From contig DXCU01000103.1 in the NCBI GenBank assembly GCA_019115845.1, forward strand, positions 46,011 through 110,010: a DNA stretch of 64,000 nucleotides, written 5' to 3'. Positions within the stretch are counted from its first letter, which is position 1. Every line of letters starts with the position of its first letter. The position numbers and the translations under genes were made by a program. This document shows, piece by piece, positions 21,788 through 25,487 of this stretch. Below the pieces are notes generated by a model. That model did not search any database. It was not told the origin of the DNA and saw only the letters and a list, made by a program, of their open reading frames with translations. Source of the DNA: Candidatus Rubneribacter avistercoris (GTDB taxonomy: Bacteria > Actinomycetota > Coriobacteriia > Coriobacteriales > Eggerthellaceae).

Positions 21788-23251
21788 TTACGCCAGGTCC
21801 TCGGCAAGGACGGAGCCGCACAGCAGGCCGGAGCCGGCGGCGGGGACGATGTCCTCGGTTCCGGCGGTGCATCCTGCGGCATAGAGATGCGGGATGGGAT
21901 CGCCGTTGGCGTCGAGCACCTCCATGCGGTCGCTCACGGCAAGCCCTCCGCAGCTTTTGTAGCGTACGGGAACGTTGCGGATGAAGTAATAGGGCGGTTC
22001 GAGCTTTTGCAGGAAAAGCGTCTTGCCGAATTCCGGATCCGCCTGGTTGTCGCAGATCGCGTTCCAGTCGTCGAAGGCCGCCTGCACCGTCGAGAGCGCC
22101 AATCCCGTCTTCTCGGCCAGCTCCTCCAACGAGGCCGCGGCCTGCACGGCGTCGCCCGCATGCGCGATGACCTCCTGGTCGATGCCGTTTTGGGCCGTGC
22201 CGTCCCAGATGCTGTACCACTCGTTGTAGCCTGCGGCCAGGCACTTGGTCGCGGCATCGTGCACGGCCGTCTCGCAATAGAAGCGCTTGCCGTTGGGCAG
22301 CAGCCCGATGAGCGGGTAGAACGTGCCAAGCATGTGCCCGGCCTCGTAGCGCGGGTTGAGGTTGCCGGAGGGACCCATGCCCGAAAGCGTGCCGCCCGCG
22401 GCCACGCCCGCGGCTATGGCGTCGCCCTTGCGTCCGGCCACGATGTTTCCGATGAAGGCCCATTCGGGGGCGTACTCTATCATCCATTCCTGGTTGGAGA
22501 CGTAGCCGCCCCCTGCGAGCACGACCGCCTTGGCCCCGATGTCGACGATCGCGCCGTCCTTCGCGACGAAGCGCCCTCCGGCCACCGTGCCGTCCTCGCC
22601 GACGATGAGCGTCTTGAACGTTGTCTCGAACAGGTAGGACGCGCCCGCCTCGGTTACCTTTTCGTTCATGAGCTCGAACTCGTCCTTCATCGTGCACAGG
22701 CCGTTTTTAGGGAAGAAAGCCTGATGGTAGGGGCTTTCGCGCAGTTCTTGGAATTCGTATCCCCATTCGTAGTGCATGGTGTCGATGAATTTGCCGCCCC
22801 AGGTTTGGAGGAGCACGGTGCGCTCGAGGCCCGCCTCGTCGTTTTCGTAGTACGGTGCGAATTTCTCGCGTATCTGCTCCGCGCTCATGTACTTGTCGGG
22901 ACGCTCCTCCTGGGTGAGCTTGGCGGTCGTGCACATTTGGCAAGCGGCCGAATAGATGGCGTCGCCTCCGTAGGTGGCGTTCTGCTCGACGATGAGCACG
23001 TTCAGGCCGGCTTTGGCGGGGTCCACGGCCGACAGCATGCCCGAGATGCCCGCTCCCACGATGAGGACGTCGACCTCCTTGCCGAAGCTCACGTCCGCGT
23101 CTCCGATGGCGCGGGCGGTTGCGGCTGCGGACGACCCTTCTCCCGCAGAGGGGGAGCTTGCGGAAGCGCAGCCCATGGCCGTTCCCCCGGCGATGGCCGC
23201 CAAGGCGCCGGCGGTTCCCAGCGCGCAGAACTGACGACGGTTCATGCTCAT
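21788..23251 (-). CDS. Tat-exported FAD-dependent reductase (fumarate/urocanate reductase family)
   Basis: 487-aa flavoprotein of the FAD-binding fumarate reductase-like family. The Tat signal MNRRQFCALGTAGALAAIAGG ends near a possible lipobox (TAMGC). The FAD-binding dinucleotide fold is VDVLIVGAGISGMLSA, with a further FAD motif HLYAAGCTAGTEDIVPAAGSGL at the C-terminus. ATG 23251 has AGGAG six bases upstream. The FMN-binding lipoprotein gene lies 32 bases upstream on the same strand, so the flavocytochrome-type functions are split over two proteins. It probably uses an organic electron acceptor in extracellular anaerobic respiration. The substrate is unknown, and the active-site residues differ enough that fumarate should not be assumed. 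Confidence 0.85.
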   Translation of the reverse strand: MSMNRRQFCALGTAGALAAIAGGTAMGCASASSPSAGEGSSAAATARAIGDADVSFGKEVDVLIVGAGISGMLSAVDPAKAGLNVLIVEQNATYGGDAIYSAACQMCTTAKLTQEERPDKYMSAEQIREKFAPYYENDEAGLERTVLLQTWGGKFIDTMHYEWGYEFQELRESPYHQAFFPKNGLCTMKDEFELMNEKVTEAGASYLFETTFKTLIVGEDGTVAGGRFVAKDGAIVDIGAKAVVLAGGGYVSNQEWMIEYAPEWAFIGNIVAGRKGDAIAAGVAAGGTLSGMGPSGNLNPRYEAGHMLGTFYPLIGLLPNGKRFYCETAVHDAATKCLAAGYNEWYSIWDGTAQNGIDQEVIAHAGDAVQAAASLEELAEKTGLALSTVQAAFDDWNAICDNQADPEFGKTLFLQKLEPPYYFIRNVPVRYKSCGGLAVSDRMEVLDANGDPIPHLYAAGCTAGTEDIVPAAGSGLLCGSVLAEDLA

Positions 23252-23283
23252 GTTGATCTCCTGCCTTTCGTCTCCGTTGGTTT

Positions 23284-23748
23284 TCACTTCGCTTGGGACA
23301 GCGCGTCTTCGACGGCTTTCCTCACGCCGCCGGTGGTCATGGTGGCGCCCGTCACTCCGTCTATGTCGGCGGACTGGGCCTCCTCGATCTGAGCCTTGAA
23401 CGTGCCGTCTTCTATGGCTTCCTTGCCTCCGATGCCCGCCGTCTCGCCCGATTCGGTTATCTCGTCAACCTGCACGCGCCCTTCGGCCACGGTGAGCGTC
23501 ACGCTGATGGTGCCGCCCATGCCTTTGCCCTCTCCCACGTAGGTTCCGTCCTTGTAGGCGGTCTTCGGGGCTTGCTCCTGCCGCTGTTCCGACGGGGCGC
23601 TCGATTCAAAGCCCGCCTCGATGCCCGCGTTCGATTGCCCCCCTTGCGGTGCCTCGGCGCCGCATCCGGCCAGAACGGGGCTCACCGACACCGCCAGGCA
23701 GCAGGCCGCGATGGCCGTCTGCCTTCCCTTGCCCTTGCGCATGGTCAT
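23284..23748 (-). CDS. FMN-binding domain lipoprotein, electron donor to the flavoprotein
   Basis: 154-aa exported lipoprotein with signal peptide ending VLAGC and an FMN-binding domain (about residues 65-150). ADIDGVTGATMTTGG matches the covalent FMN attachment motif (D/S-GAT-T), where ApbE transferases link FMN to a Thr. Such proteins pass electrons from membrane flavoproteins or quinol dehydrogenases to a surface reductase. It precedes the FAD reductase by 32 bases. ATG 23748 or 23742 could be used. No apbE gene is in the window, so flavinylation must come from elsewhere. Confidence 0.87.
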   Translation of the reverse strand: MTMRKGKGRQTAIAACCLAVSVSPVLAGCGAEAPQGGQSNAGIEAGFESSAPSEQRQEQAPKTAYKDGTYVGEGKGMGGTISVTLTVAEGRVQVDEITESGETAGIGGKEAIEDGTFKAQIEEAQSADIDGVTGATMTTGGVRKAVEDALSQAK

Positions 23749-23830
23749 GTTCCTTTCTTGATCCTTTCTCGGTCGGGTTCTGGACGCCCGTATTTAATCC
23801 GCGCTGCCGGGGTAACATCAAGCCGCACGG

Positions 23831-23892
23831 CGGGGTATCTTCGAAAACGATGGGGTATGCGTGAGGTAGCCGTGAGGTAGTGCGTGAGGGTG
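23831..23892. promoter_or_regulatory. Direct repeats in the divergent reductase/regulator control region
   Basis: GTGAGGTAG at 23861-23869 and 23872-23880, and GTGAGGGTG at 23884-23892, repeat with an 11-12 base period, one helical turn. GGGGTAT also occurs twice just upstream (23832 and 23852). They lie between the LuxR-type regulator and the FMN lipoprotein gene, the expected place for the regulator's operator. On the minus side a weak promoter (TTGATG, 19 bases, TAAATA, 23821-23791) may serve the reductase genes. Confidence 0.45.
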
Positions 23893-24038
23893 CGGTTTCT
23901 CATCTGCGAATTTGCGAAAACGGGAAGCGCTCGGGACGCGATGTTCTGTACTATGGCAAGCTGACGGGAACGGGCGGCAGGACGTTTCCGGCGTGGCGGG
24001 GCTCGCCTCGCCCGGCCCGTTTCGGAAAGGGGATGGCT

Positions 24039-25487
24039 ATGAACCGCAAGGGTGCTCCGCACGACGCCCCGACGGCGGAAGCGCTGTCGGCTCCGGCGTT
24101 CGCTTTGCTCGTGTGCGGGCTGGGGACGTATTTGGGATGGCAGACGGTCGGCATCTCCCCAACGTTGTTCCCTCGTCCGCAGGCGATGAGCGCCCAGGTC
24201 CTTGAGCTGGCGAACTATCTGCAGACGGCGCTCTTCTTGGTTTTGCTCGCGGTGCTTGCGCGGGTGGCCCTGCGCCGGGGCGGAGGGCTCATTTCCTCGA
24301 GGCTCCTCGTGCTGTCGGCGCCCGCGCTCATGTGCGCCTCGACCGTCTGCGCCTATGCGAGCGGTTGGGTGTTCGACCAGCCTCTCGGGACGGTGGCGGG
24401 CGTTGCGCTCGGGGCGTCGAAAGCGGCGCTTCTGCTCCTGTGGTCGGAATGCCTCTGCCGCGTCCGTTTCCGCGATGCGCTTCTGTGCGTGGCGCTCGTG
24501 TACGCAACGGCGTTTTCGCTGTGCCTGCTGGTGGCGGGTTTGAAGCCCCTGCCGGCGCTTATCGTGCATGCGGTGCTGCCGCTGCTTTCGGGTGCGGCGC
24601 TTCTGGCGTTGCGCTTTGACGGCGCCTTCGTCGCTTTGGGAAGCGCGCCCCCGCGCGAAGCGGGGTCCGCCTCGCTCCTGCCCCTGCGGCTTTTCGTGGG
24701 AGTCGGGCTGTTCGGGGCCGTCAGCCTGCTCACGAACTCGCTTTCGGAGGAGAAGTCCTCCGCCACAGCCGAGCTCAACACTCTGATCGCGGGGCTTGCC
24801 GTGTCCGCGATCATCGCCCTTCTGGCCAGGCGGCGAAGCGGGGGGTTCGACTTCATGCTCCTCTACCGCATGCTCACGCCCCTCATCATAGTGAGCATCA
24901 TTCCCGTCCTCACGCTCGAGAGCGGAAACCAGCAGTACGAGGCGTTCGTCATAGGGGCGGGGTGGACGTTCTTTCGCATATTCACCTGGACGCTTTGGTG
25001 CAGCATCGCTTTGCGCTCGCGCGTTCCCGCGGCGACCGTCTTCGCGGCGGGCCAGTTCTCCTTGACCGCGTGCAGCACGCTCGCCCAGGCTCTCTACGAC
25101 GGGTTTTTGCAGGAGGCCGGCGTTTCCCTGCCCGTCACGATATCGGGCATCATCGCGCTGGCCGTGGCCGTGTCGGCCTTCGTGATGAGCGAAGGGGACA
25201 TCAGGCGGTTCTTCGAGAGGCGCAAGGCGCGGCGGCAGCCTGCCGACGACGAGGAGGCGTTCGCTCGGTGCGCGCGGCGCGCCGCGTGCGAGTTCGGGCT
25301 GTCGAACCGCGAGGAGGAGATAGCCGTCCTCGTCATGAAGGGGAAGAACAACGCTGTCATCGAAAAGCTGCTCTGCATAACCGAGAGCACGCTGCGCACG
25401 CATCTGCGAAACATCTACGGGAAAGCGGGGGTCCATAGCCGGCAGGAGCTTGCCGACACGCTCGCATCGTACCTCGACGACGCGTGA
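24039..25487 (+). CDS. Polytopic membrane LuxR-type transcriptional regulator
   Basis: 482-aa regulator with about 12 predicted transmembrane segments (about residues 15-385) and a C-terminal LuxR HTH (about 415-480): LSNREEEIAVLVMKGKNNAVIEKLLCITESTLRTHLRNIYGKAGV. This layout is characteristic of Eggerthellaceae, where many such regulators stand next to Tat-exported reductases and respond to small molecules. GAAAGGGG six bases before ATG 24039 decides the start; the listed ORF begins far upstream. It is divergent from the FMN lipoprotein and flavoprotein genes and is very probably their regulator, sensing the reductase substrate at the membrane. Confidence 0.88.
   Translation: MNRKGAPHDAPTAEALSAPAFALLVCGLGTYLGWQTVGISPTLFPRPQAMSAQVLELANYLQTALFLVLLAVLARVALRRGGGLISSRLLVLSAPALMCASTVCAYASGWVFDQPLGTVAGVALGASKAALLLLWSECLCRVRFRDALLCVALVYATAFSLCLLVAGLKPLPALIVHAVLPLLSGAALLALRFDGAFVALGSAPPREAGSASLLPLRLFVGVGLFGAVSLLTNSLSEEKSSATAELNTLIAGLAVSAIIALLARRRSGGFDFMLLYRMLTPLIIVSIIPVLTLESGNQQYEAFVIGAGWTFFRIFTWTLWCSIALRSRVPAATVFAAGQFSLTACSTLAQALYDGFLQEAGVSLPVTISGIIALAVAVSAFVMSEGDIRRFFERRKARRQPADDEEAFARCARRAACEFGLSNREEEIAVLVMKGKNNAVIEKLLCITESTLRTHLRNIYGKAGVHSRQELADTLASYLDDA

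What the first reader, a model, noticed from the sequence alone, without database searches (positions are those of the whole stretch)
21788..25487. Split extracellular flavin reductase with a dedicated membrane LuxR sensor
FMN-binding lipoprotein and Tat-exported FAD reductase form one operon, divergent from a 12-helix LuxR regulator. In Eggerthellaceae such trios use diverse diet- or host-derived acceptors for respiration. The acceptor of this one cannot be read from sequence and may be new.
Basis: partly seen in the sequence, partly recalled or inferred. Interest (0 to 1): 0.6.

Follow-up and report, generated by a model that had tools for sequence, protein, structure and literature searches.

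The report
Gut respiratory-type reductase cassette, unknown acceptor
A gut bacterium carries a portable set of three genes - a membrane sensor, an electron-carrying surface protein and an exported enzyme - that probably lets it 'breathe' one particular food- or host-derived molecule; the enzyme is clearly not a fumarate reductase, and what it reduces is still unknown.

Summary
The trio is real and conserved: FMN_bind lipoprotein (23284-23748, -), Tat/lipobox FAD_binding_2 flavoprotein (likely 21788-23251, -) and divergent TM-LuxR (likely 24039-25487, +; the 23880 start is too early). The reductase has 71-85% identical orthologs in 8 other of 140 Eggerthellaceae genomes; seven keep the whole trio, and only the trio is kept between distant genera. 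Two Lachnospiraceae carry the reductase with FMN_bind (72-74%) without LuxR, one with FMN_bind fused to an EstA-type esterase.

New here: the intergenic region holds a phased TACCtCA direct-repeat array just upstream of a sigma-70-like promoter. It occurs once per genome, in 7 of 9 cassette-bearing and 0 of 131 other Eggerthellaceae genomes: strong evidence for a dedicated operator.

The enzyme has the fumarate/urocanate reductase fold (AF2 pLDDT 84; best PDB hits UrdA and Fcc3). Every aligned catalytic and carboxylate-binding residue is replaced (R402->H343, H504->K444, E378->M319, R381->T322; the R544 segment is deleted). It forms its own long-stemmed clade, about 30% identical to the nearest relatives. 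A fumarate reductase is refuted; the acceptor is undetermined.

Verdict: an uncharacterised orthogroup within a known kind (12-TM-LuxR-controlled extracellular flavoreductase), with an unusual active site.

The parts
21788..23251 (-). Tat-exported lipoprotein-type FAD flavoprotein (487 aa), fumarate-reductase superfamily PF00890, own orthogroup; ORF can be extended to GTG 23287
   Evidence: PF00890 E 2.6e-28; SD AGGAG before ATG 23251, same start as orthologue L001 (487 aa); AF2 pLDDT 84.3 and PDB fold hits 6t86, 1qjd
23284..23748 (-). FMN_bind lipoprotein (154 aa) with DGVTGATMT flavinylation-type motif; the only stand-alone FMN_bind ORF among 14 FMN_bind domains in this genome
   Evidence: PF04205 E 9.3e-14; sequence; other domains lie in 680-1081 aa frames
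24039..25487 (+). Membrane LuxR-type regulator (482 aa; 12 predicted helices plus C-terminal GerE HTH), divergent
   Evidence: PF00196 E 9.6e-11; orthologues 52-74% identical over the whole length including the membrane domain; 12 hydrophobic segments in the averaged profile
23873..23879 (-). operator box 1 TACCTCA
   Evidence: conserved in 7 aligned loci
23862..23868 (-). operator box 2 TACCTCA
   Evidence: conserved in 7 aligned loci
23851..23857 (-). operator box 3 TACCCCA
   Evidence: conserved in 7 aligned loci
23831..23837 (-). operator box 4 TACCCCG (TACCTCA in the other six aligned loci), preceded by a TTTT block at 23844-23847
23792..23821 (-). promoter-like -35 TTGATG (23816-23821; TTGACG in the other loci), 18-bp spacer, -10 TTAAAT (23792-23797)
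   Evidence: sequence, conserved in the alignment

Best explanation
A self-contained, inducible extracellular reductase cassette. The 12-TM LuxR senses the acceptor (or something close to it) at the membrane and binds the TACCtCA array upstream of the promoter to switch on the FMN_bind-flavoprotein operon. The FMN lipoprotein (flavinylated by the genome's ApbE) sits on the outer face of the membrane, takes electrons from the quinol/respiratory chain and hands them to the FAD of the Tat-exported flavoprotein. The FAD delivers a hydride to an activated C=C (or similar) bond of a substrate that is not a simple dicarboxylate; protonation and polarisation come from the Y443/K444/H343 set instead of the Arg/His set of fumarate reductase. 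Shown: gene content, conservation, operator-cassette association, fold, loss of the fumarate/urocanate catalytic residues. Inferred: flavinylation, electron path, direction of electron flow, LuxR binding to the array, induction by substrate. The acceptor is not known; of the candidates I lean weakly to a plant-derived, ester-released phenylpropenoid or other unsaturated plant compound, because in one rumen MAG the FMN domain is fused to an esterase.
For: Trio conserved as the only shared genes between distant genera. Array once per genome in 7 of 9 cassette genomes and 0 of 131 others, unique in its own genome even with 2 mismatches; the 31%-identical sister cassette has a different conserved element, TCCGAAACGGA. 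In G041 the array (shifted spacing) still stands directly upstream of the reductase although the FMN and LuxR genes are missing there. FMN_bind motif and a single ApbE in the genome. Fold: UrdA/Fcc3 best hits, E about 1e-31 to 1e-30. Literature: 12-TM LuxRs activate their neighbouring enzyme in response to its substrate (PMC9734109); FMN_bind domains link fumarate-reductase-like enzymes to the respiratory chain (PMC8238504). Esterase-FMN_bind fusion directly upstream of the orthologue in L007.
Against: No biochemical or expression data. The esterase fusion is one MAG; G438, with an 84%-identical reductase, has a plain FMN_bind gene and no esterase beside it. Reduction rather than oxidation is not shown: the superfamily also holds ketosteroid and cyclohexanone dehydrogenases. 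G041 seems to manage without an adjacent FMN_bind gene. No binding evidence for the array.
Confidence: 0.68

Rival explanations
1. It is a fumarate (or other dicarboxylate) or urocanate respiratory reductase like Fcc3, FrdA of Listeria or UrdA.
For: Same superfamily and fold; Fcc3 and UrdA are the best sequence and structure matches.
Against: R402, H504, E378, R381, H365 and R544 of Fcc3 align with H343, K444, M319, T322, G308 and a deleted segment; the equivalents in UrdA are lost at the same columns. H343 and K444 are invariant in 12 orthologues. TIGR01813 scores 135 bits against a cut-off of 285.
Confidence: 0.03
2. Hydroxycinnamate/phenylpropenoid reductase: the cassette reduces the side-chain C=C of ester-released plant phenolics.
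For: FMN_bind fused to an EstA-type esterase, with a two-domain esterase just downstream, in the rumen Lachnospiraceae locus; hosts are gut and rumen bacteria.
Against: Single fused instance; the esterase family is broad (nearest solved relative Thermotoga EstA), so feruloyl specificity is not shown; no match to the vinyl phenol reductase model (98.9 bits against a cut-off of 600).
Confidence: 0.25
3. Dehydrogenase or reductase of a cyclic ketone or steroid-like substrate (ketosteroid dehydrogenase-like), possibly running in the oxidative direction with electrons going to quinone.
For: Structure hits to 3-ketosteroid delta4-(5alpha)- and delta1-dehydrogenases and cyclohexanone dehydrogenase; the carboxylate-binding Arg segment is absent, which suits a neutral substrate.
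Against: Ketosteroid equivalog models far below cut-off (88 against 789 bits); TM-scores 0.59-0.67, lower than to UrdA/Fcc3; catalytic residues not aligned residue by residue here.
Confidence: 0.15
4. Extracellular thiol/disulfide, sulfoxide or quinone reductase using the orthogroup-specific cysteines next to the flavin.
For: Five cysteines are invariant in the 12 orthologues (C116, C119, C198, C412, C473); C116 and C119 form a CxxC aligned with the SAGG stretch of Fcc3 and this CxxC is absent from the sister clade.
Against: Their mutual distances were not measured on the model; the cysteines may be structural or hold a metal centre, as was considered for Cgr2 (PMC5953540).
Confidence: 0.1

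Closest known systems
DadR-dadh, CadR-cadh, HcdR-hcdh (12-TM LuxR-controlled enzymes of Eggerthella, PMC9734109)
   Same: 12-TM LuxR with C-terminal GerE domain encoded beside a metabolic enzyme; E. lenta DSM 2243 has 83 TM LuxRs, 50 of them near flavin enzymes (that paper).
   Different: Those characterised enzymes are molybdenum dehydroxylases; here a split FMN/FAD flavoenzyme. A DNA target array is proposed here; none was found described in that paper's main text.
Cgr1/Cgr2 (cardiac glycoside reductase, E. lenta, PMC5953540)
   Same: Exported PF00890 flavoprotein with an electron-carrier partner in a two-gene operon and active-site residues unlike fumarate reductase.
   Different: Cgr1 is a cytochrome and Cgr2 carries [4Fe-4S]; here the partner is an FMN_bind lipoprotein and the enzyme belongs to another branch.
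Urocanate reductase UrdA and flavocytochrome c3 (Shewanella)
   Same: Fold and FAD-binding framework.
   Different: All aligned catalytic/carboxylate residues replaced or deleted; FMN or haem domain is fused in those, a separate gene here.
FMN_bind-linked fumarate-reductase-like gene clusters (PMC8238504)
   Same: FMN_bind protein and PF00890 protein encoded together; a separate-gene arrangement is recorded there for 189 clusters against 3070 fused proteins.
   Different: Adds a divergent 12-TM LuxR and its own operator; substrate unknown.
E. lenta DSM 2243 sister clade (G054:C1:3280530, L057/L083)
   Same: Nearest clade; shares RYK[ST]xGG, a SHD/VHD histidine, and a divergent TM-LuxR.
   Different: About 30% identical, lacks the CxxC, no FMN_bind gene beside it, different conserved upstream element.

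Membership tests
Fumarate reductase, flavocytochrome c3 type | FAD_binding_2 fold | tested here: met
   PF00890 E 2.6e-28; 1qjd E 1.2e-30, TM 0.72
Fumarate reductase, flavocytochrome c3 type | proton-delivery residues R402, E378, R381 | tested here: not met
   aligned to H343, M319, T322; column identity checked with the R402K/Y and R381K mutant chains in the same alignments
Fumarate reductase, flavocytochrome c3 type | substrate carboxylate residues H365, H504, R544 | tested here: not met
   G308, K444, and a deleted segment
Urocanate reductase UrdA | conserved Arg/His at the columns of Fcc3 R402, H504 and R544 | tested here: not met
   alignment to 6t85: H343, K444, segment absent
Vinyl phenol reductase VprA (NF053717) | score above the equivalog cut-off | tested here: not met
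   98.9 bits against 600
3-ketosteroid dehydrogenases | score above equivalog cut-offs | tested here: not met
   88 against 789 bits and similar
3-ketosteroid dehydrogenases | catalytic Tyr/Ser set | not tested
   no residue-level alignment to 4at0/4c3x was obtained
ApbE-flavinylated FMN_bind proteins | FMN_bind domain with [ST]GA[ST]-type motif and ApbE in the genome | tested here: met
   PF04205, DGVTGATMT, ApbE G000:C41:25733-26563
ApbE-flavinylated FMN_bind proteins | covalent FMN | not testable with these tools
   needs protein
12-TM LuxR regulators of Coriobacteriia | 10-12 N-terminal TM helices plus C-terminal GerE HTH | tested here: met
   12 hydrophobic segments (averaged profile); PF00196
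12-TM LuxR regulators of Coriobacteriia | substrate-dependent activation of the neighbouring enzyme | not testable with these tools
   needs reporter or RNA assay
Cgr2 cardiac glycoside reductase | [4Fe-4S] cluster and cytochrome partner | tested here: inconclusive
   partner is FMN_bind, not cytochrome; five invariant Cys but cluster binding cannot be judged

The most novel reading that the evidence does not exclude
An undescribed family of inducible extracellular reductases, shared by Eggerthellaceae and rumen Lachnospiraceae, that uses a flavin active site built on Lys/Tyr/His and a flavin-adjacent CxxC instead of the Arg/His set, reduces an acceptor not yet known to support respiration, and is addressed by a cassette-specific phased-heptamer operator read by a 12-TM LuxR.
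Probability: 0.35. Interest if true: 0.7.

Novelty: new variant of a known kind. Interest (0 to 1): 0.5.

Why it matters
Gut Eggerthellaceae carry tens of such flavoenzymes (about 60 FAD_binding_2 matches here), almost all without a known substrate. This one is a conserved, transferable unit with its own sensor and a sharply defined DNA target. The acceptor can therefore be hunted with a reporter: a LuxR plus array-promoter fusion would light up with the right compound, in line with the published finding that 12-TM LuxR inducers match the substrates of the neighbouring enzymes (PMC9734109, PMC11585353). The isolated active site makes an unfamiliar reaction plausible, and the operator finding gives a testable rule for how a genome with dozens of 12-TM LuxRs avoids cross-talk: each cassette has its own DNA address.

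Tried and rejected
Fumarate/urocanate reductase: rejected on residues. First AF2 job with 12 close orthologues gave pLDDT 53 and was discarded; the 29-sequence alignment gave 84. Alignment A1 held one row in a wrong frame (L017); replaced by A3/A4. The LuxR start at 23880 and reductase start at 23287 were rejected in favour of 24039 and 23251; my interim estimate of 24069-24075 for the LuxR start (notebook) was wrong. Esterase as a general marker of the family: rejected, since esterase relatives in 14 other Lachnospiraceae genomes were matched mostly over the esterase part only and G438 lacks one beside its reductase. Conserved flanking genes beyond the trio: none between distant genera; TerC and other flanks are shared only with G053 and G090. 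The key survey of gut respiratory reductases (Little et al. 2024, known to me from memory) is not in the library, so its characterised enzymes could not be compared directly.
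Full report
What is there. Three genes occupy 21788-25487 as described. On the minus strand, an FMN_bind lipoprotein gene (23284-23748, PF04205 E 9e-14, lipobox, DGVTGATMT motif) is followed after about 32 nt by a FAD_binding_2 flavoprotein (PF00890 E 2.6e-28) with a twin-arginine and lipobox N-terminus. Its likely start is ATG 23251 behind AGGAG, which gives 487 aa as in orthologue L001. Divergently lies a LuxR-type protein with a C-terminal GerE domain. Orthologues start at its M54, so the gene is 24039-25487; the orthologue-averaged hydropathy profile shows 12 hydrophobic segments.

Conservation. Seven keep the FMN_bind gene and a divergent LuxR orthologue (one LuxR cut by a contig end), 52-74% identical over its whole length for the complete ones. 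The published statement for E. lenta is that membrane domains of different 12-TM LuxRs are generally below 20% identical (PMC9734109), so conservation of this membrane domain points to a conserved ligand. Between distant genera nothing but the trio is shared. G041 keeps only the reductase. Two Lachnospiraceae have the reductase (72-74%) with FMN_bind but no LuxR.

Operator. The 290-nt intergenic region carries TACCTCA-N4-TACCTCA-N4-TACCCCA, a TTTT block and a fourth box, then TTGATG-18 bp-TTAAAT ahead of the FMN gene. The layout is conserved in seven aligned loci. In the whole genome the triple pattern has one site, the only other match within 2 mismatches being the same site one box further on. 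Across 140 Eggerthellaceae genomes the triple pattern occurs in 7, once each, all of them cassette genomes and upstream of the cassette; it is absent from all 131 genomes without the reductase. By hypergeometric arithmetic this is about 2e-10, not corrected for relatedness. The sister cassette instead shows a conserved TCCGAAACGGA element in five of six loci. The boxes are spaced close to whole helical turns just upstream of -35, as expected for an activator. Binding by this LuxR is inferred. G041 retains a shifted version directly before its reductase.

Enzyme. A 29-sequence alignment gave an AF2 model of pLDDT 84.3; the best PDB hits are UrdA (6t86, E 4e-31) and flavocytochrome c3. In profile alignments to 1qo8 and 6t85, the columns of Fcc3 R402, E378, R381, H365 and H504 hold H343, M319, T322, G308 and K444, and the segment with R544 is deleted. 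R402 and R381 columns were confirmed by mutant chains in the alignments. H343, Y443 and K444 are invariant in 12 orthologues, and RY[KR][ST]xGG recurs in most of the sister clade. Invariant C116, C119, C198, C412 and C473 include a CxxC, specific to this orthogroup, at the stretch aligned with the SAGG stretch of Fcc3. The orthogroup is monophyletic (100/100) on a stem of 2.0 changes per site, while branches inside it are about 0.1: old, isolated and tightly constrained.

Electron path. The genome has one ApbE and 14 FMN_bind domains, of which only this one lies in a short stand-alone frame. Published counts put fused FMN_bind/fumarate-reductase-like proteins far above separate-gene clusters (3070 proteins against 189 clusters, PMC8238504). 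The split form is a recognised minority arrangement.

Acceptor. The residues exclude the fumarate/urocanate set. The one positive hint is the L007 locus from a roe deer rumen Lachnospiraceae MAG: the FMN domain (67% identical to the window's) is fused, without an internal signal peptide, to an EstA-type esterase directly upstream of the reductase, with a two-domain esterase downstream. This suggests an ester-released substrate but is a single case; G438 lacks the esterase. I give phenylpropenoids 25%.

Verdict. It is an uncharacterised, tightly conserved orthogroup of a known kind of system, with an unusual active site and a cassette-specific operator that makes the acceptor screenable.

Noticed in passing
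L007:2970-10451 (Lachnospiraceae MAG RGIG5021, roe deer rumen): EstA-type esterase fused to FMN_bind (675 aa) upstream of the reductase orthologue, and a double-esterase protein (971 aa) downstream; the fusion was not seen in the other Lachnospiraceae matches.
   Followed up: partly
L022:3128-4777 (G041, uncultured Gordonibacter): Reductase orthologue without FMN_bind or LuxR beside it, yet with a TACC array of shifted spacing and TTGACG directly upstream, between chaperone-region genes (hrcA/dnaJ-like).
   Followed up: partly
L083:4772-11465 (E. lenta DSM 2243) and L084: Cluster of three flavoreductases with a divergent TM-LuxR; the first belongs to the sister clade, whose upstream regions share a conserved TCCGAAACGGA palindrome followed by GGTGACG.
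   Followed up: partly
whole genome G000: About 60 FAD_binding_2 flavoproteins but only one ApbE and 14 FMN_bind domains, so most of these enzymes must take electrons by another route.
   Followed up: no
window 21788-23287 (residues 116, 119, 198, 412, 473): Five invariant cysteines specific to the orthogroup, with a CxxC aligned to the flavin-binding SAGG stretch; role unknown.
   Followed up: partly
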